The notes under the pieces: model-generated
Seen by the model: only the letters and a program-made list of their open reading frames with translations
Told to the model about the DNA's origin: nothing
The model's database searches: none
Assembly: GCF_001279725.1 (NCBI RefSeq)
Contig: NZ_LGDE01000159.1
Coordinates: 19,207 to 83,206 of the forward strand
Reading direction: 5' to 3'
DNA: 64,000 nt
Source: Streptomyces sp. WM4235
GTDB lineage: Bacteria > Actinomycetota > Actinomycetes > Streptomycetales > Streptomycetaceae
In this document: piece after piece, positions 26,299 to 33,942 of the stretch
How positions within the stretch are numbered: position 1 is the first letter of the stretch
How the letters are laid out: the number at the start of each line of letters is the position of its first letter
Translations under genes and position numbers: made by a program

Positions 26299-29200
26299 TC
26301 AGTCCCTGCGGACGAGCCACTCCGGCGCGATCCGTTCCGCCCCGCTCACGTTCGTGCCCCGGTGCACCTCGACGACCAGGCCCTCCAGATCCGCGAGCGG
26401 CGACAGGTCCACCGTGCCCAGGCACTCGCTCAGCACCAGCCGCCGCAACCCCCGGAACGCGCGCAACGGCTCCAACGTCCCCTCCAGCGCACACCTGATC
26501 AGGGTCAGCCGGGTCAGCCGCTCGTAGGGCAGGAGCGCCTCGATCGCCACCGGCGCGGCATGCCGGATCTGCAACCCGTCCAGGTCCGGCAGCGGCAGCT
26601 CCCGCGTCAACTGCCGGTACTGGCCGCTCCCGGCGATCGTCAGCGTCCGCACCCCGGGCCACCGGTCGATCCCGTCCAGCGTCATCCGGCGGGCGCCCTG
26701 CCAGATGTGCAGCGCGGCCAGGGTCTCCGCCGCCGGGACGTCCCCGATCCGCCGCTGCTCCGGCTCGAACCCGATGACCAGGGAGCGCAACCCCGCGGCC
26801 CCGGCCAGCGGGGCCAGCGAGAGTCCGTCCCGCAGGTAGCCGAAGGCGAGGCTGTCCGCCGCCAGCTCGGTCACCACCTCGACCCCGGTCACCTGCGGGC
26901 AGTCCAACACCCCCAGATGGCGCAGCGTCGGATGCCCGGCCAGCGGGGACAGGTCGGTCAGCCCCGGATTGCGGTGCATGACCAGCCACTCCAGGTCCCG
27001 CCGGCCCGAGATCGCCGGCGGGATCGGGCCGTCCCAGGTCAGGTGGACCCGGTGGATGTGCCGCAACCGCTCGTAGGTCGCCAACTGCTCGGCCGTGCGC
27101 AGGTGCAGGTGGCCCTCGCGTACGGGCGCCCCGGACAGCACCGCGTCCGCGTACGCCTCGTTGGGGAAGCGCCCCCACGAGTCCGACAGCTCGTGCACCA
27201 CCTCGTACCGGTCGTCCGACCGGAACCCCGCGATGACCTGGAGTGCCCGGTCCCCGCCGACCAGCGCGGCCGTCCGGATCGTCGCGGCTGCCTCGTCCTC
27301 GGTGAGGTCGGCCGGTTCCGGCAGAAGTTCCAGGACCAGTTCCCCCGCCTTGGCCAGCTCCTCGGCCTGCGCGGCCGAACGCGGCGGCAGCAGGTGCGCC
27401 GTACGGGTCTCCACCTCGTGCCACACCTCCGGGTCCAGCTCGGGGGCGTGCTCCAGACAGGCCGCCGCCAGCAGCACCAGCCGGCTGCGGTCCCGTTCGT
27501 TCTCGTCGGCCCGCCGCAGCAACTCCCGCAGCAGGTGGGCCCGTTCGTCGGGTCTGGCGTGTCCGACCGCCATCCGGATCACGTCGTCCCAGGTGTCCTC
27601 GTGCGCGTTGCGCACCAGCACGCCGAAGTCCCGCGCCTCCACGGCCGCCTTCGCCCCCAGGTAGTCCTGGAAGACGCGGTGGACGAACTGCACGGAATCC
27701 GGCACCGGTTCCCGGAGCAGGCCGGAGCGGATCAGCAGATGCCGGAACACCCTGCGCGCACTGCCCTGCGCCCGGACCTGCGGCATCGCGTCGAGCCACT
27801 CGCCGACCATCTCGATCGCCTCCTCGAAGGAGGCCACCAACTGCCCGTTGCGGATGAGCCAGTACGCCAGCCGCTGGAGCAGCACCGTCTGCTCGTCCCG
27901 GCTGAGGTAGACGCCCTCGACCCCCGCTATGTCCCGCTCGGTGTCCCGGCGGACCAGGAGCATGTCCAGCGCGGCGTCGTACAGCTCCTTGCGGGCCCGG
28001 GGCAGATGCATCCGCCGGTCCCGGTTCAGGGCGCACAGCAGGGCGCACATCAGCGGGTTGGTGGCCAGTCGGCCGAGGTCCCGGCGCGTGCTCACCGCCT
28101 GGATGAGCGACTTCTCGTACGTGTCGAGCTGCTCCCGCTCCTGCCCGGAGACGCCCTCCGCCCGGGCGGAGTCGTGCCAGTGCGTGATGAAGGCCCCGAC
28201 GCCGTCCCGCTCCATGGGCAGCAGCGACAGGGGGGAGAAGCCGTGCCCGGTCAGCCAGTCCTCCGGGACGGCCGAGGGGCGGGTGGTGATCACGAACCGG
28301 GCCGTGGGATAGGCGATGAGCAGGGCCCGGAGCCAGGTCTCCGTCCGGTCGCGCAGGCGGGGCGGGACCTCGTCCACCCCGTCGACCAGGACCAGCGCCC
28401 GCCCGGCGGAGAGGAGGGACTCCACCCAGCCGTCCGGTGCCCGCAGCGGCACCCCGGTCGCGCTCAGCCAGTCCTGCGGCATCGGCAGCCCCGCGGGGGA
28501 GTTGAAGGACCGCAGCGGCAGCACGAAGGGGACGAGGAGGTTCCAGTCCCGCAGTCCGGGGCCGAAGGTGCGGCGGGCGGAGTTCAGGGCCAGCCACTGC
28601 ACGAGGGTGCTCTTGCCCGAGCCCGCCGGACCGCGCAGCAGCACCCGCTCGGAGGCGCCGAGGGCCAGTTCGGTGCTCATAGGGGTGGTCCGGCCCGGTT
28701 CCTCCAGGAGTCGCTCGCCGCTGACCGCCAGGCTGATGTACGCCCGGTCCAGCGGCCACTCCCGGCGGGCCTGACTGAAGGTGAGCCCGAACAGTTGGAG
28801 TCGCCCGTGCGCCTCGGCGATGTACCGGCCGTACCGCTCCTCGAAGGCGAGCGCCGCGCGGTCGCCGGTGTGCGAGAGCCGGTCCACCGCCCGGGCCAAC
28901 TCGGCCATCCGGCGGACCAGTTCCACGTCCGCCCGGGCGGAGAAGCCCGGCAGGGTGGTCGCGTACTCCACCACGTGCGTGCAGCACAGTTCGACGAGCC
29001 GGCGGTGGACGGACTCCGCGGCCTCGCTCAGGCCCGCCGCGCGGGGCGGCGGGATCGCCGCCGCCAGGGCCGCCGGTCGCAGGTCCGCGGCGAAGAGGGC
29101 GTCGGCGTCCAGCCGGCCCACCATGGCGAAGGTGTCGGCCACCGAGTCCACCACGGCCGACCGCTCGTGGTCCGGCAGCCGGGCCGCCTCCTCGCCCAGG

Positions 29201-29391
29201 CGGGAGGCCAGGGTGCGGGTGAGTCGGCGGATCTCGGGGTCGCCCAGTTCCGTCGGTCGGCGCAGGCGGCCGGCGGGACGGGCGGGGTGGGCGGTCAGGC
29301 CGGCGCCGGGGGCCCGGGCGAGGAGGGATTTCAGCAGGGTGGTCGCCGCCGTGCCCGCGACCCGTAAGAGAACCGTCTCGAAACCTGTCAT
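26299..29391 (-). CDS. NACHT-LRR STAND ATPase (NLR-like protein)
   Basis: A 1030-aa protein. Residues 1 to about 230 are a helical N-terminal domain (NACHT-associated, possibly the effector), beginning MTGFETVLLRVAGTAATTLLK. Walker A GPAGSGKST is at 254-262, Walker B ALVLVDGVDEVPP at about 332-344, then a sensor FVITTRPSAVP. A winged-helix/helical arm region follows (to about 700). The C-terminal third carries degenerate leucine-rich repeats (LSPLAGHPTLRHLGVLDC, LEPLRAFRGLRRLVLSEC). This is the architecture of animal NLRs and bacterial bNACHT antiphage proteins. No transmembrane helix or nuclease motif is seen. GGGAAGG precedes the ATG. Confidence 0.87.
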   Translation of the reverse strand: MTGFETVLLRVAGTAATTLLKSLLARAPGAGLTAHPARPAGRLRRPTELGDPEIRRLTRTLASRLGEEAARLPDHERSAVVDSVADTFAMVGRLDADALFAADLRPAALAAAIPPPRAAGLSEAAESVHRRLVELCCTHVVEYATTLPGFSARADVELVRRMAELARAVDRLSHTGDRAALAFEERYGRYIAEAHGRLQLFGLTFSQARREWPLDRAYISLAVSGERLLEEPGRTTPMSTELALGASERVLLRGPAGSGKSTLVQWLALNSARRTFGPGLRDWNLLVPFVLPLRSFNSPAGLPMPQDWLSATGVPLRAPDGWVESLLSAGRALVLVDGVDEVPPRLRDRTETWLRALLIAYPTARFVITTRPSAVPEDWLTGHGFSPLSLLPMERDGVGAFITHWHDSARAEGVSGQEREQLDTYEKSLIQAVSTRRDLGRLATNPLMCALLCALNRDRRMHLPRARKELYDAALDMLLVRRDTERDIAGVEGVYLSRDEQTVLLQRLAYWLIRNGQLVASFEEAIEMVGEWLDAMPQVRAQGSARRVFRHLLIRSGLLREPVPDSVQFVHRVFQDYLGAKAAVEARDFGVLVRNAHEDTWDDVIRMAVGHARPDERAHLLRELLRRADENERDRSRLVLLAAACLEHAPELDPEVWHEVETRTAHLLPPRSAAQAEELAKAGELVLELLPEPADLTEDEAAATIRTAALVGGDRALQVIAGFRSDDRYEVVHELSDSWGRFPNEAYADAVLSGAPVREGHLHLRTAEQLATYERLRHIHRVHLTWDGPIPPAISGRRDLEWLVMHRNPGLTDLSPLAGHPTLRHLGVLDCPQVTGVEVVTELAADSLAFGYLRDGLSLAPLAGAAGLRSLVIGFEPEQRRIGDVPAAETLAALHIWQGARRMTLDGIDRWPGVRTLTIAGSGQYRQLTRELPLPDLDGLQIRHAAPVAIEALLPYERLTRLTLIRCALEGTLEPLRAFRGLRRLVLSECLGTVDLSPLADLEGLVVEVHRGTNVSGAERIAPEWLVRRD

Positions 29392-29506: not shown

Positions 29507-30490
29507 ATGCCGAACCTGCCCGATGTCGTGCTGTGGTCCATACCAGCCTTCGTGCTGCTCACCGTCATCGAGGTGGTCAGTTACCGGCTCCATCCCGACG
29601 AGGATGCCGCCGGCTACGACACCAAGGACGCCGCCACGAGCATCACCATGGGGCTGGGCAGCATCGGCTTCGACCTGCTCTGGAAGATCCCGGTCGTCGC
29701 GGTCTTCACCGCCGTCTACGAACTCACCCCGCTGCGCGTGCCGTTCCTGTGGTGGACCGCCCTGCTGATGCTCCTCGTCCAGGACTTCCTGTACTACTGG
29801 CAGCACCGCCTCCACCACGTGATCCGCATCCTGTGGGCCTGCCACGTGGTCCACCACAGCAGCAAGCGGTTCAACCTCACCACCGCCCTGCGCCAGCCCT
29901 GGACCAGTGCCACCACCTGGTGGTTCTACCTGCCCATGGTGGCGCTCGGCGTCCACCCGGCGGCGATCCCGTTCTGCTACGGAATCAACCTGCTCTACCA
30001 GTTCTGGGTCCACACCGAGCGCATCGGGAAGCTGCCGCGGCCCTACGAGTACGTCTTCAACACCCCCTCCCACCACCGCGTCCACCACGCCTCGCAGGGC
30101 GGCTACCTGGACCGCAACTTCGGCGGCATCCTGATCATCTGGGACCGTCTGTTCGGGTCCTGGGTCGGGGAGACCGACCGGCCCGTCTACGGGCTCACCA
30201 AGAACATCGCCACCCACAACCCGCTGCGCGTGGCCACCCACGAATACGCCGCCATCGCCCGCGACGTACGCGCCGCCGGAAGTTGGAGCGAGCGCGCCGG
30301 CCGGGTCTTCCGCGGCCCCGGCTGGCAGCCCGCCGCGGCCACCGCCCCGGGCTCCCCGCCCACCGCCCCCGTTCCCGCCCCGGGCTCCCCGGGCGGCGAA
30401 CCGGCACCGGCATCGGCGCCGCAGCCCCCACAGCCCTCGTCTGCCTCGCCTGCCTCGTCGAAGGCCCCCGCCTCCGAGCACGCCGCGTGA
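29507..30490 (+). CDS. Fatty-acid-hydroxylase superfamily membrane protein, AGMO/TMEM195-like
   Basis: A 327-aa membrane di-iron protein usually labelled sterol desaturase. The His boxes are HRLHH (about 101-105), HVVHHSS (about 114-120) and SHHRVHH (about 190-196). The stretch from FNLTTALRQ through INLLYQFWVHTE, NTPSHHRVHH and FGGILIIWDRLFG closely follows human alkylglycerol monooxygenase as I remember it, closer than C-5 sterol desaturase. AGMO cleaves alkyl ether lipids using tetrahydrobiopterin. Four to five hydrophobic spans; the last 45 residues are a Pro/Ala/Ser tail. It overlaps the lysoplasmalogenase-like gene by GTGA. Confidence 0.88.
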   Translation: MPNLPDVVLWSIPAFVLLTVIEVVSYRLHPDEDAAGYDTKDAATSITMGLGSIGFDLLWKIPVVAVFTAVYELTPLRVPFLWWTALLMLLVQDFLYYWQHRLHHVIRILWACHVVHHSSKRFNLTTALRQPWTSATTWWFYLPMVALGVHPAAIPFCYGINLLYQFWVHTERIGKLPRPYEYVFNTPSHHRVHHASQGGYLDRNFGGILIIWDRLFGSWVGETDRPVYGLTKNIATHNPLRVATHEYAAIARDVRAAGSWSERAGRVFRGPGWQPAAATAPGSPPTAPVPAPGSPGGEPAPASAPQPPQPSSASPASSKAPASEHAA

Positions 30491-31170
30491 GCGCCACCGA
30501 GTCCCGCACGCCGTCCTGGGCGCGGGACACCGCGTCCGGCGGCGGACGACGGGCCCTCGCCGGCCGGATCGCCCTCGCCGGGTTCGCCGTGGCCGCGGCC
30601 GTCGACCTCGGCTCGCTCCTCGCCGACTGGCACCTCGGGCACGTCATCGCCAAACCGCTGCTGATGCCGCTGCTCGTCGCCCACGTGATCGCGCTCGGCG
30701 CCCCCCGACTGCTGGTCGCCGCCCTGCTGTTCGGCTGGGGCGGGGACCTGGCGCTCCTCTTCGACGCCGATGCCGCGTTCCTGGTCGGCATGGGCTCCTT
30801 CGCCCTCGGTCACGTCTGCTACCTCGTGCTCTTCGGCCGGCGCGCGACCAACCCGCTCCTCGGCGGCGCGTACGCCCTCGCCCTCGTCGCCACCGTCGCG
30901 CTGCTCTGGAGCGACCTGCCGGCCGAGCTGCGCGTCCCCGTCGCCGGATACAGCCTGCTGCTCACCGCCATGGCCTACCGCTCCAGTGCCCTCGGAGTGC
31001 GTGCCGGGATCGGCGGCGCGCTGTTCCTGCTGTCCGACACCCTCATCGCGACCGGGGTCGCCGAGTGGCCCCAGTTGCCCCGGCCCGACTTCTGGATCAT
31101 GGCCACCTACCTGGCGGCCCAGTACCTGCTGGCCACCGGCGTGCGCCCCCGGGAGGCAGGCGTACGGTAG
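30487..31170 (+). CDS. Lysoplasmalogenase-like (YhhN/TMEM86 family) membrane protein
   Basis: A 227-aa protein with about eight hydrophobic segments and family blocks KPLLMPLL, LLFGWGGDLALLF, FALGHVCYLVLF, GALFLLSDTLIA and WIMATYLAAQYLLATG. Conserved acidic residues lie inside membrane segments (GGDLAL, SDTL), as in TMEM86, which hydrolyses the vinyl-ether bond of lysoplasmalogens. The GTG start overlaps the stop of the AGMO-like gene, so the two are translationally coupled. Together they suggest ether-lipid cleavage (inference). Confidence 0.88.
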   Translation: MSATESRTPSWARDTASGGGRRALAGRIALAGFAVAAAVDLGSLLADWHLGHVIAKPLLMPLLVAHVIALGAPRLLVAALLFGWGGDLALLFDADAAFLVGMGSFALGHVCYLVLFGRRATNPLLGGAYALALVATVALLWSDLPAELRVPVAGYSLLLTAMAYRSSALGVRAGIGGALFLLSDTLIATGVAEWPQLPRPDFWIMATYLAAQYLLATGVRPREAGVR

Positions 31171-31229
31171 GGGAGCCCACAAGGCGGGTCCTGCCCACAC
31201 CACCCCCCGATCCGGAGGACTGCACCACC

Positions 31230-32273
31230 ATGCGCGCCACCGTCATCCACGCCCCGCACGACATCCGCGTGGAGGAGGTGCCCGACGCCGCGATCCGGCG
31301 TCCCGAGGACGCCGTCGTCCGCGTACTGCGCGCCTGCATCTGCGGCAGCGACCTCTGGGCCTACCGCGGCGAGGCCGCGCGAGAGCCCGGACAGCGGATC
31401 GGCCACGAGTTCCTCGGCATCGTCGAGGAGACCGGCTCCGCCGTCACCGACCTGCGCGCCGGCGACCTCGTCGTCGCCCCCTTCATGTGGTCCGACGGCA
31501 CCTGCCGGCACTGCGTCGAAGGCCTCCACACGTCCTGCGTGGACGGCGGCTTCTGGGGCTCGGTCGGTCACGACGGCGGCCAGGGCGAGGCCGTCCGCGT
31601 TCCGCACGCCGACGGCACCCTGGTCAAGCTGCCCGCCGACGCCGCCTCCGACGACCACCTGCTGACCGCCCTGCTGGCGCTGTCCGACGTCATGGGCACC
31701 GGCCACCACGCGGCGCTCGGCGCCGGCGTCCGCAAGGGCTCCACGGTCGCCGTCGTCGGTGACGGCGCGGTCGGCCTGTGCGGCGTCCTCGCCGCGAAGC
31801 GCCTCGGCGCCGACCGGATCATCGCGCTGGGCCGCCACACCGCCCGTACGGACATCGCCACGCTCTTCGGCGCCACCGACATCGTCGCCGAACGCGGCGA
31901 GGCCGCCGAGGCGGCCGTCCGCGAACTGACCGCCGGCGAGGGCGCGCACGCGGTCATCGAGGCCGTCGGCACCGAACAGTCCATGCGCACGGCCGTCAAC
32001 ATCACCCGCGACGGCGGATCCATCGGCTACGTCGGCGTCCCGCACGGCAGCGGCACCGGCCTGGACCTCGACGTGATGTTCGACCGCAACCTGACCCTGC
32101 GCGGCGGCGTCGCGCCGGTGCGCGCGTACATCCCGGAGCTGCTCGCGGACGTGCTCAGCGGCGCGATCGACCCCTCCCCGGTCTTCGACCGGGCGGTCTC
32201 CCTGGACGAGGTCCCGGACGGCTACCGCGCGATGGACGACCGCAGCGCGCTCAAGGTGCTCATCAAGCCGTAG
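31230..32273 (+). CDS. Zinc-dependent medium-chain alcohol dehydrogenase
   Basis: A 347-aa MDR enzyme. Catalytic-zinc ligands are Cys in CICGSDLW (about 36-38) and GHEF; the Rossmann motif is VAVVGDGAVGLCGVL. The structural-zinc loop reads SDGTCRHCVEGLHTSC, with only three of the usual four Cys, the first being replaced. The substrate is not known. The gene begins 60 nt after the lysoplasmalogenase-like gene with GGAGGA upstream, and a terminator follows, so all three may form one transcript. Processing the fatty aldehydes released by the first two enzymes would fit (inference). Confidence 0.88.
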   Translation: MRATVIHAPHDIRVEEVPDAAIRRPEDAVVRVLRACICGSDLWAYRGEAAREPGQRIGHEFLGIVEETGSAVTDLRAGDLVVAPFMWSDGTCRHCVEGLHTSCVDGGFWGSVGHDGGQGEAVRVPHADGTLVKLPADAASDDHLLTALLALSDVMGTGHHAALGAGVRKGSTVAVVGDGAVGLCGVLAAKRLGADRIIALGRHTARTDIATLFGATDIVAERGEAAEAAVRELTAGEGAHAVIEAVGTEQSMRTAVNITRDGGSIGYVGVPHGSGTGLDLDVMFDRNLTLRGGVAPVRAYIPELLADVLSGAIDPSPVFDRAVSLDEVPDGYRAMDDRSALKVLIKP

Positions 32274-32297
32274 GCATCACCGGGCGGTACGGAACGC

Positions 32298-32333
32298 AAG
32301 GGGCCGGTCGGGGAGTACCCCGACCGGCCCCTT
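32298..32333 (+). terminator. Terminator after the alcohol dehydrogenase gene
   Basis: 16-bp perfect stem AAGGGGCCGGTCGGGG / CCCCGACCGGCCCCTT with a 4-nt loop, between convergent genes. It may work in both directions. Confidence 0.85.
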
Positions 32334-32394
32334 CACGTGTCCGGCCCGCCCCACGCGTCACCTCACGCGCGCGTGGGCCACGCCTACGCCATGC

Positions 32395-33942
32395 CTACTT
32401 CACGGCGCGGAGCGCGTTCACCACGCCGGAGCCGTAGTAGCCGGTCTGGCCCCACTTGCTCTTGCAGGTGGTGGCGTCGATCAGCGCGCCGGCGCCGTCG
32501 TAGATCTTGTCCGGGCAGGCCTGCTTCGTGGCCTGGGCCTTCAGCAGCGCCTGGAGCTGCGACGGCGTGGCGGAGGGGTGCTTGCTCTTCAGCAGCGCCA
32601 CGACGCCCGCGACGTGCGGGGCGGCCATCGAGGTGCCCTGCTTGTAGCCGTAGCCGCCGCCCGGAAGGGTCGACAGCACCCGGCCGTTGGCGTCCGGCGT
32701 GGCCGGCACCTGCCACTTGTCGCCACCGGGGCCCGCGACGTCGGCGACGCCCAGCCCGTAGCTGGAGTAGTACGACCGAAGGCCCTGGTCGCCGGTGGCG
32801 GTCACGGTGACCACGCCGGGGAGCTGGGTGGGAAGGTCGAGGCAGACCTTCGGGTCGATGGTGCGCGGCACGGCGGTGGTGTCGTTCGGGCTGGTGGTGT
32901 CCTCGATCGAGGGACCGGCCAGGTCGTGGTCGGAGTTGCCGGCCGAGGCCACGCTCAGGACACCCTTGCGCTCCGCGTACTTCGTCGCCCGCGCGATGGC
33001 CTCCACCAGCGCCTTCTGGTCGTCGTCCGACTTGCAGGTGTAGTTCCACGGGTCGACGTAGTAGCTGTTGTTGGTCACCTCGATCCCCTTCTCGGCGGCG
33101 AACATGAAGCCGCAGACGACGGCCTCGGTGTAGAAGAGGCTGGTCCCGGGCTCGCTCACCTTGATGGCGGCGACCTTCACGCCGGGCGCGACACCGCTGA
33201 TGCCGATGTCGTTGCGCGCGGCGGCGATGGTGCCCGCGACGTGGGTGCCGTGGTCGCTGCCGTCGGCGTACGGACGCCAGGCGCCCTCGGTGGTGTCGGG
33301 GACACCGCCCACGCAGTTCGCGGACTGGCCCTTGGAGAAGTTCGGGGCGAGGTCCGGGTGGGTGTCGTCCACACCCGTGTCGATGACGCCGACCGTCACG
33401 TTGCGGCTGCCGTCGTTGATCTTGTGGGCCTCGTCGGCCTTGATCGCCCGCAGGTCCCACTGGTTCGACTCCAGGGGCTCCTGGCCCGCCGTGGCCTTCG
33501 CCGCCGCCTTCGCGGCGTCCGCCGCGCTCAGCCGCTGGGTGGCGCCCTCCTCGGTGGTCTGCACCGGGGACAGCGGGGCCGTCCGGGTGGCGCCGACCGA
33601 CACGAACAGGCTGCGCTGGGCGCGCAGTTGCTTGGCGAAGTCGGGGTTCTGGGAGTGCGCGACGACGACCCCGATCTGCTCGTGCGAGGTCACCACCGTT
33701 CCGCCGGCCTTCTCGATGGCCTTCTTCGCCTGCTTCACCGTCCCGTACGCGGTCAGGTTCGCCACGTACGACAGCTTGGGGCCGGAGGTGTCGGGCTTGG
33801 CCGTCGCCACCGCGTCCGCCGTGTTGCCCAGCGGGGCGGCGGACGCCGCGACGGAGGGAAGGAGGGCGAGCGAGGCGGTGAGTGCCAGTCCGACCGGAAC
33901 GGCGAGTGCGCGCCGCCGGTGACCGGTTCCCAGGTGAGCCAT
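32395..33942 (-). CDS. Secreted subtilisin-like serine protease (S8)
   Basis: A 515-aa secreted protease. Signal peptide about 1-38 (basic RRRALAVPVG then a hydrophobic run ending near ASA). An inhibitor_I9-type propeptide lies at about 45-120. The catalytic triad is Asp in GVIDTGVDDTHPDL, His in DHGTHVAGT and Ser in GTSMAAPHVAG. There are several Cys in the catalytic domain. The ATG is at the end of a 258-nt region that also serves the DUF485 gene. An S. coelicolor orthologue (SCO1824, recalled) is under developmental control. Confidence 0.95.
   Translation of the reverse strand: MAHLGTGHRRRALAVPVGLALTASLALLPSVAASAAPLGNTADAVATAKPDTSGPKLSYVANLTAYGTVKQAKKAIEKAGGTVVTSHEQIGVVVAHSQNPDFAKQLRAQRSLFVSVGATRTAPLSPVQTTEEGATQRLSAADAAKAAAKATAGQEPLESNQWDLRAIKADEAHKINDGSRNVTVGVIDTGVDDTHPDLAPNFSKGQSANCVGGVPDTTEGAWRPYADGSDHGTHVAGTIAAARNDIGISGVAPGVKVAAIKVSEPGTSLFYTEAVVCGFMFAAEKGIEVTNNSYYVDPWNYTCKSDDDQKALVEAIARATKYAERKGVLSVASAGNSDHDLAGPSIEDTTSPNDTTAVPRTIDPKVCLDLPTQLPGVVTVTATGDQGLRSYYSSYGLGVADVAGPGGDKWQVPATPDANGRVLSTLPGGGYGYKQGTSMAAPHVAGVVALLKSKHPSATPSQLQALLKAQATKQACPDKIYDGAGALIDATTCKSKWGQTGYYGSGVVNALRAVK

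What the first reader, a model, noticed from the sequence alone, without database searches (positions are those of the whole stretch)
29507..32273. Putative bacterial ether-lipid cleavage cluster: AGMO-like, lysoplasmalogenase-like and alcohol dehydrogenase
The first gene is usually called sterol desaturase, but its blocks around the His boxes (ALRQ, INLLYQFWVHTE, NTPSHHRVHH, IIWDRLFG) follow animal alkylglycerol monooxygenase (TMEM195) as I remember it. The second gene overlaps it by GTGA and is of the TMEM86/YhhN lysoplasmalogenase family. In animals these enzymes break the alkyl- and vinyl-ether bonds of ether lysolipids, both releasing a fatty aldehyde; a zinc alcohol dehydrogenase 60 nt downstream could process it. 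Ether lipids are not a known regular part of Streptomyces membranes, and the pterin cofactor of AGMO would have to be supplied. The coupled pair is seen directly; the pathway is inference.
Basis: partly seen in the sequence, partly recalled or inferred. Interest (0 to 1): 0.75.

Follow-up and report, generated by a model that had tools for sequence, protein, structure and literature searches.

The report
Bacterial ether-lipid cleavage gene pair
A Streptomyces genome carries a tightly coupled pair of membrane-enzyme genes that resemble the two animal enzymes that cut ether lipids; the same pair appears to have come together separately in a distant bacterial phylum, which suggests a real but untested bacterial route for breaking down ether lipids.

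Summary
Confirmed: 29507-30490 (PF04116) overlaps a YhhN/TMEM86-family gene (GTG 30487 to 31170) by GTGA; a zinc alcohol dehydrogenase follows after 59 nt (31230-32273), then a strong hairpin. The first protein lies on the AGMO side of its superfamily: 35-40% identical to vertebrate AGMO, 100/100 branch, all catalytic histidines plus AGMO-typical Q162; yeast ERG3 falls outside. It lacks two features of animal AGMO: the BH4-contacting glutamate (valine here) and the C-terminal domain; its genome shows no PTPS for BH4 synthesis. The YhhN protein keeps all eight proposed catalytic residues. The pairing is not chance: in 121 genomes of the genus, 70 of 78 with both families have them adjacent in this order; of 80 AGMO-like loci from other groups, 15 (all Bacteroidota) hold YhhN, 14 directly downstream. 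The paired YhhNs do not form one clade (p-AU 0.001). An aldehyde dehydrogenase adjoins three of the 15 and none of the other 65. Best reading: an ether-lysolipid cleavage module whose fatty aldehyde goes to a dehydrogenase; cofactor probably not BH4. Against: most AGMO-like loci lack YhhN, the ADH follows only 19 of 29 Streptomyces pairs, and no activity is shown.

The parts
29507..30490 (+). AGMO-like membrane di-iron oxygenase gene (327 aa; usual annotation: sterol desaturase family)
29804..29821 (+). First histidine box H100-H104 and V105, the position of human AGMO E137 (BH4-contacting glutamate, here valine)
   Evidence: alignment columns; role of E137 from PMC3617469 (passages)
29894..29896 (+). 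Q130 codon = human AGMO Q162 (in ALRQ), found in 82 of 82 bacterial AGMO-like proteins and in none of 11 other FA_hydroxylases; one row on the AGMO side, plasmid locus L089, has L
30329..30487 (+). Ala/Pro/Ser-rich C-terminal tail, mostly low confidence, in place of the AGMP_C domain of animal AGMO
   Evidence: 75% A/P/S over 53 residues; falling pLDDT; no PF24858 match
30487..30490 (+). GTGA overlap of stop and start (translational coupling likely, inferred)
   Evidence: sequence
30487..31170 (+). YhhN/TMEM86-family gene, predicted lysoplasmalogenase (227 aa, eight long predicted helices)
   Evidence: PF07947 121 bits; residues K56 G86 D87 H109 G176 S183 D184 Y208; AF2 pLDDT 91.6
31230..32273 (+). 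Zinc-dependent medium-chain alcohol dehydrogenase (347 aa), possible aldehyde-handling step
   Evidence: PF08240, PF00107; best PDB match 4cpd; follows 19 of 29 Streptomyces pairs examined, the window included
32298..32333 (.). Perfect 16-bp inverted repeat between the convergent dehydrogenase and subtilase genes, terminator-like hairpin without a T run
   Evidence: 32293-32345 folds at -40.3 kcal/mol, z -5.75; the pattern scan, which asks for a T run, found none

Best explanation
The two overlapping genes encode a membrane module that removes ether-linked chains from lysolipids. The AGMO-like di-iron oxygenase hydroxylates the carbon next to a saturated alkyl-ether bond; the YhhN protein adds water to the vinyl-ether bond of lysoplasmalogens. 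Both routes give the same kind of unstable hemiacetal, which falls apart into a fatty aldehyde and a glycerol or glycerophospho compound; the aldehyde is then reduced or oxidised by a dehydrogenase (zinc ADH in many Streptomyces, an ALDH in some Bacteroidota). The likely substrates are ether lysolipids from other organisms, used as carbon or removed as membrane-lytic detergents. In this actinobacterial branch the oxygenase probably takes its electrons from something other than BH4. Shown here: family placement, residue conservation, recurrent pairing, some neighbouring dehydrogenases. Inferred: substrates, chemistry, donor, physiological role.
For: AGMO placement: 181 bits to coelacanth AGMO against 29 bits over 35 residues to yeast ERG3; 85 AGMO-like rows split 100/100 from 11 other FA_hydroxylases; nine histidines, Q162, D233, N235, W243, D244 kept. 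YhhN: residues proposed as catalytic and tested in TMEM86A/B (PMC11994398, passages) are all present, and an actinobacterial YhhN, M. tuberculosis Rv1401, is a proven lysoplasmalogenase although that bacterium has no plasmalogens of its own (PMC9052158, abstract and sections 15, 25). Coupling: adjacent in 70 of 78 genomes of the genus with both; 14 of 80 AGMO-like loci of other groups have YhhN directly downstream, gaps -80 to +65 nt by longest frames, plus one 2.1 kb away; paired YhhNs as one clade rejected, p-AU 0.001. Aldehyde handling: an aldehyde dehydrogenase lies beside the genes in L050, L052 and L006, all 3 of 3 among the 15 loci with YhhN, 0 of the other 65; the L050 one has 378 bits to 'Fatty aldehyde dehydrogenase' 4qgk. 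In L012 (Pedobacter) a zinc-binding dehydrogenase of another MDR branch ends 63 nt upstream of the AGMO-like gene. A glycerol kinase GlpK, above its curated cut-off, starts 6 nt after the AGMO-like gene in L037.
Against: BH4 glutamate replaced by valine and AGMP_C domain absent; no PTPS in the genome. In the class sample only 8 of 22 genomes with both have them adjacent, 7 of these 8 being of the window's genus (counted by hand). 65 of 80 AGMO-like loci have no YhhN in their flanks, some flanks being short; of five plasmid AGMO-like loci searched only L082 has one. The ADH is missing after 10 of 29 pairs, and no relative of it is near the 80 loci of other groups. ALDH neighbours are few (3 loci, two lineages) and were noticed after the fact. 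The animal AGMO branch joins the mostly actinobacterial branch only at 90/79.
Confidence: 0.5

Rival explanations
1. The AGMO-like protein keeps the di-iron hydroxylase chemistry but acts on another bacterial lipid (for example the alpha carbon of an acyl chain, an ornithine lipid or an isoprenoid), with the YhhN protein acting on the product or on an unrelated lysolipid.
For: E137 and the AGMP_C domain are missing and no PTPS is found; the only NCBIfam model that responds is ornithine-lipid hydroxylase OlsE, at 42 bits; the window lies in a separate 47-row, mostly actinobacterial branch.
Against: OlsE is far below its cut-off of 475; AGMO-typical Q162 is kept where 11 other FA_hydroxylases lack it; recurrent pairing with a lysoplasmalogenase family and the fatty-aldehyde-type ALDH point to aldehyde-releasing ether chemistry.
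Confidence: 0.27
2. The module turns over ether lipids that Streptomyces makes itself but that have been missed, as a housekeeping or light/oxidation response.
For: The module is frequent in the genus (78 of 121 genomes hold both families), as an endogenous role would predict. Plasmalogen genes plsA/plsR are reported for several actinobacterial orders, Actinomycetales among them (PMC9702350, passages); from memory that order name once took in Streptomyces. I did not search for these genes here.
Against: M. tuberculosis keeps a working lysoplasmalogenase without plasmalogens of its own (PMC9052158, abstract). Streptomyces is not mentioned in PMC9702350. No CarF-type desaturase match in the genome, but no control rang either, so this says nothing.
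Confidence: 0.12
3. The genes are neighbours without a shared function; the order is simply inherited within Streptomyces.
For: Gene order of close relatives is conserved for many genes; the subtilase gene also stays nearby in some loci. Counts here are not corrected for phylogeny except on the trees.
Against: The pairing also occurs in Bacteroidota with YhhNs of a separate lineage, on a transposase-flanked plasmid stretch, and needs at least 9 changes of state among 73 rows of the AGMO tree; in the genus the two families mostly come and go together (76 both, 34 neither, 11 one only, strict score cut).
Confidence: 0.06

Closest known systems
Animal alkylglycerol monooxygenase (AGMO/TMEM195)
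   Same: Same superfamily branch; 35-40% identity to five vertebrate AGMOs; all catalytic histidines and Q162, D233, N235, W243, D244
   Different: Valine for the BH4-contacting E137; no AGMP_C domain (PF24858); overlaps a YhhN gene; activity untested
YhhN/TMEM86 lysoplasmalogenase; an enzyme-tested actinobacterial example is M. tuberculosis Rv1401
   Same: PF07947, eight predicted helices, same proposed active-site residues (PMC9052158)
   Different: Overlaps an AGMO-like gene; substrate untested
Yeast C-5 sterol desaturase ERG3 / bacterial 'C-5 sterol desaturase' annotation
   Same: Histidine boxes of the FA_hydroxylase superfamily
Ornithine lipid hydroxylase OlsE (NF052566)
   Same: FA_hydroxylase superfamily; 42 bits over residues 61-223
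   Different: Far below the curated cut-off of 475
Lysoplasmalogen-specific phospholipase D of Thermocrispum (PMC5095149, search listing with start of abstract only)
   Same: Another enzyme aimed at lysoplasmalogens, from an actinobacterium (genus placed from memory)
   Different: Cleaves the phosphoester bond, not the vinyl ether (listing)

Membership tests
AGMO | Catalytic histidines (human H132-H225) | tested here: met
   all nine present
AGMO | Q162, D233, N235, W243, D244 essential for activity | tested here: met
   Q162 absent from all 11 non-AGMO rows
AGMO | Y236 essential in the human enzyme | tested here: inconclusive
   F in the window; coelacanth AGMO also has F, 36 of 82 bacterial relatives have H
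AGMO | E137, BH4-contacting glutamate | tested here: not met
   V105 in the window; E in 70 of 82 relatives; E in 7 of 30 sampled actinobacterial rows, and also in 3 of 11 non-AGMO rows
AGMO | C-terminal AGMP_C domain (PF24858) | tested here: not met
   absent; present in vertebrate P0242
AGMO | Phylogenetic placement with animal AGMO rather than other FA_hydroxylases | tested here: met
   100/100 split of 85 and 11 rows
AGMO | BH4-dependent alkyl-ether cleavage | not testable with these tools
   needs an enzyme assay
C-5 sterol desaturase | Groups with ERG3 | tested here: not met
OlsE (NF052566) | Curated NCBIfam cut-off 475 bits | tested here: not met
   42.3 bits
YhhN/TMEM86 lysoplasmalogenase | PF07947 above curated cut-off | tested here: met
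   120.7 against 25.6
YhhN/TMEM86 lysoplasmalogenase | Conserved active-site residues K, G, D, H, G, S, D, Y | tested here: met
   matched by motif order and spacing, TMEM86A itself was not aligned
YhhN/TMEM86 lysoplasmalogenase | Eight membrane helices | tested here: met
   eight long helices in the AF2 model
YhhN/TMEM86 lysoplasmalogenase | Cleavage of lysoplasmalogen | not testable with these tools
   needs an enzyme assay

The most novel reading that the evidence does not exclude
Bacteria own a repeatedly assembled ether-lysolipid catabolic module (AGMO-like oxygenase plus YhhN lysoplasmalogenase, at times with an aldehyde-handling dehydrogenase), and in Actinomycetes the oxygenase works without tetrahydrobiopterin, making a second, pterin-free or folate-type class of enzymes that cleave alkyl-ether bonds.
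Probability: 0.27. Interest if true: 0.75.

Novelty: new variant of a known kind. Interest (0 to 1): 0.58.

Why it matters
The 2021 review of AGMO calls it the only known enzyme that breaks down alkylglycerols and lyso-alkylglycerophospholipids (start of abstract), and the 2013 review says that it could not be purified so far (start of abstract; passages). A bacterial relative in an operon with the matching lysoplasmalogenase could give an expressible model, would show how bacteria dispose of ether lipids, and would help to explain why bacteria without plasmalogens keep lysoplasmalogenases. The replaced BH4 glutamate makes the electron-donor question directly testable. In the open-licence PMC library I found no paper that joins the two families in bacteria: searches (23 and 86 listed 20 of 372 and 20 of 55 papers; 112 was too broad to say anything). 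One search ('sterol desaturase' with 'lysoplasmalogenase') returned none. One search gave three papers that name both enzymes and bacteria; the one seen in passages (PMC9131029) describes them as mammalian enzymes, the other two were seen in the listing only. Most subscription papers were not covered.
Full report
What is there. The window is from a Streptomyces-type genome (the named close relatives of the protein are Streptomyces; the genome holds one FA_hydroxylase gene). Three genes lie on the + strand between a divergent NACHT-domain gene and a convergent subtilase gene: 29507-30490 (PF04116), 30487-31170 (PF07947) and 31230-32273 (zinc alcohol dehydrogenase). Genes 1 and 2 overlap by GTGA. 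After gene 3 lies a perfect 16-bp inverted repeat (32298-32333); the stretch 32293-32345 folds at -40.3 kcal/mol, z -5.75. It lacks a T run, so the pattern scan does not list it.

Gene 1 and AGMO. The window protein is 40% identical to coelacanth AGMO over 283 residues and 37% to gibbon AGMO over 308; five vertebrate AGMOs range from 35 to 40%. Residues that abolish human AGMO when mutated are given in PMC7911779 and PMC3617469 (passages). All nine histidines, Q162, D233, N235, W243 and D244 are kept; Y236 is F, as in coelacanth AGMO. Among 82 bacterial AGMO-like proteins from 80 loci Q162, D233, N235 and D244 are invariant. In 11 other FA_hydroxylases the Q162 position holds E, G, K, F, H or Y, never Q; one AGMO-side row, plasmid locus L089, has L. 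A 96-row maximum-likelihood tree separates 85 AGMO-like rows from those 11 with 100/100 support; the window lies in a 47-row branch, 42 of whose rows are actinobacterial, joined to animal AGMO only at 90/79. A forced ERG3 plus Streptomyces clade costs 10 lnL units, p-AU 0.059.

What is missing. The glutamate next to the second histidine, E137 in human AGMO, raises the Km for BH4 18-fold when mutated (PMC3617469, passages). It is V105 here. It is E in 70 of 82 bacterial relatives, but in 30 sampled actinobacterial rows of the tree it is R 12, V 10, E 7, L 1, so 23 of 30 lack it. That review says that no other FA_hydroxylase has a glutamate there; three of my 11 non-AGMO rows do, so the marker is weaker than stated. 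The AGMP_C domain (PF24858) is absent. Vertebrate P0242 has it; of two Bacteroidota relatives scanned, L003 passes the cut-off and L014 does not. In its place is an Ala/Pro/Ser-rich tail. The genome has a pterin-4a-carbinolamine dehydratase but no PTPS match, while 9 of 14 control genomes have one. Animal AGMO accepts some other tetrahydropterins, and tetrahydrofolate less well (PMC3617469), so a folate-type donor remains open. By the rule of the task I therefore do not file the protein as AGMO; I call it AGMO-like and hold that it probably works like AGMO.

Gene 2. The protein has the YhhN domain and K56, G86, D87, H109, G176, S183, D184, Y208, which match by order and spacing the eight residues tested in TMEM86A/B (PMC11994398, passages) and the five of M. 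tuberculosis Rv1401 (PMC9052158, section 15). In 56 aligned YhhNs G86, D87, S183, D184 and Y208 are invariant. The AF2 model has eight long helices at mean pLDDT 91.6. The 200-aa models P0126 and P0131 begin where the window has an ATC codon, inside helix 1. In M. tuberculosis a 200-aa form that lacks helix 1 was inactive (PMC9052158, section 15), so the GTG start at 30487 is the better one.

Pairing. In 121 genomes of the window's genus 81 have YhhN, 89 a PF04116 gene, 78 both, 29 neither; in 70 of the 78 the YhhN domain follows on the same strand 266-573 nt after the PF04116 domain. Some of the other 8 are split over contigs. With a strict cut of 99 bits, 76 have both, 6 only PF04116, 5 only YhhN, 34 neither (not corrected for phylogeny). 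In 148 genomes of the class, 29 have a PF04116 match over 90 bits after removing three that the tree rejects (two of the 29 were not placed; lower-scoring genomes were not assessed); 22 of the 29 have YhhN, against 14 of 119 others. Only 8 of those 22 are adjacent: 7 of the window's genus and one of another family. A linear plasmid of Streptomyces sp. 3211 carries the pair between transposase genes; four other plasmid AGMO-like loci searched have no YhhN. In the YhhN tree these and the Streptomyces ones lie apart; one clade of all paired YhhNs is rejected, p-AU 0.001. Caveats: nine Bacteroidota rows have odd letter make-up, the Bacteroidota branch itself has 88/96, and no unpaired Bacteroidota YhhN was in the set. 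On the AGMO tree pairing needs at least 9 changes among 73 rows. The pair has thus probably come together more than once, which argues for a shared task.

Aldehyde and glycerol. The zinc ADH follows 19 of the 29 Streptomyces pairs that I could examine (loci of up to 3.5 kb, the window included), and in G226 it follows the AGMO-like gene although YhhN is absent. No relative of it is in the 80 loci of other groups. In Bacteroidota L050 and L052 (one lineage) an aldehyde dehydrogenase follows YhhN; in L006 (another lineage) one precedes the AGMO-like gene. For L050 the PDB matches include 4qgk, 'Fatty aldehyde dehydrogenase', 378 bits, second to a plain 'Aldehyde dehydrogenase' (6k0z, 404 bits); from memory, ALDH3A2 is the enzyme that clears AGMO's product in animals. 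All three ALDH loci are among the 15 with YhhN; by chance 0.0055, noticed after the fact and only two lineages. In L012 (Pedobacter) a zinc-binding dehydrogenase of another MDR branch ends 63 nt upstream of the AGMO-like gene. In L037 a glycerol kinase GlpK, above its curated cut-off, starts 6 nt after the AGMO-like gene. The other neighbours that I scanned (among them homocysteine S-methyltransferase, PGA_cap, carboxyltransferase, cation efflux, penicillin-binding protein, asparaginase, lactone oxidase, queuosine synthesis, ALAD, peptidases) show no theme.

Mechanism. From established chemistry of the two animal enzymes, AGMO hydroxylates C1 of the alkyl chain and lysoplasmalogenase hydrates the vinyl ether; both give a hemiacetal that releases a fatty aldehyde. 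One organism with both enzymes can therefore clear both kinds of ether lysolipid, and needs one aldehyde outlet. I judge this reading at 0.5, with another lipid substrate for the oxygenase as the main rival.

Noticed in passing
window 26299-29391 (-): NNH1-NACHT gene (1030 aa) divergent from the AGMO-like gene over a 115-nt gap; a relative is upstream in 9 of 29 paired Streptomyces loci, the window included. No PADLOC hit.
   Followed up: partly
L082 (plasmid of Streptomyces sp. 3211): AGMO-like plus lysoplasmalogenase pair between transposase genes, perhaps a mobile copy of the module.
   Followed up: no
L037:5992-8709: Glycerol kinase GlpK starts 6 nt downstream of an AGMO-like gene in a Bacteroidetes MAG.
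   Followed up: partly
L046 and L048: Two AGMO-like genes in tandem, a long one and a short one that groups with the mostly actinobacterial branch.
   Followed up: no
L015, L021, L029, L049, L074, L078, L079, L081, directly downstream of the AGMO-like gene: A small secreted or lipoprotein-like ORF of about 120-130 aa with a shared pattern recurs beside the AGMO-like gene in these eight loci, mostly Cytophagales-type by title.
   Followed up: no
window 32395-33942 (-) and L006:5975-7906: A subtilase gene lies next to the module in Streptomyces (convergent) and between the AGMO-like and YhhN genes in L006; perhaps coincidence.
   Followed up: no
window 30487-30568: 200-aa models of this YhhN (P0126, P0131) start where the window has an ATC codon and would lack the start of membrane helix 1: a likely annotation error.
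   Followed up: yes
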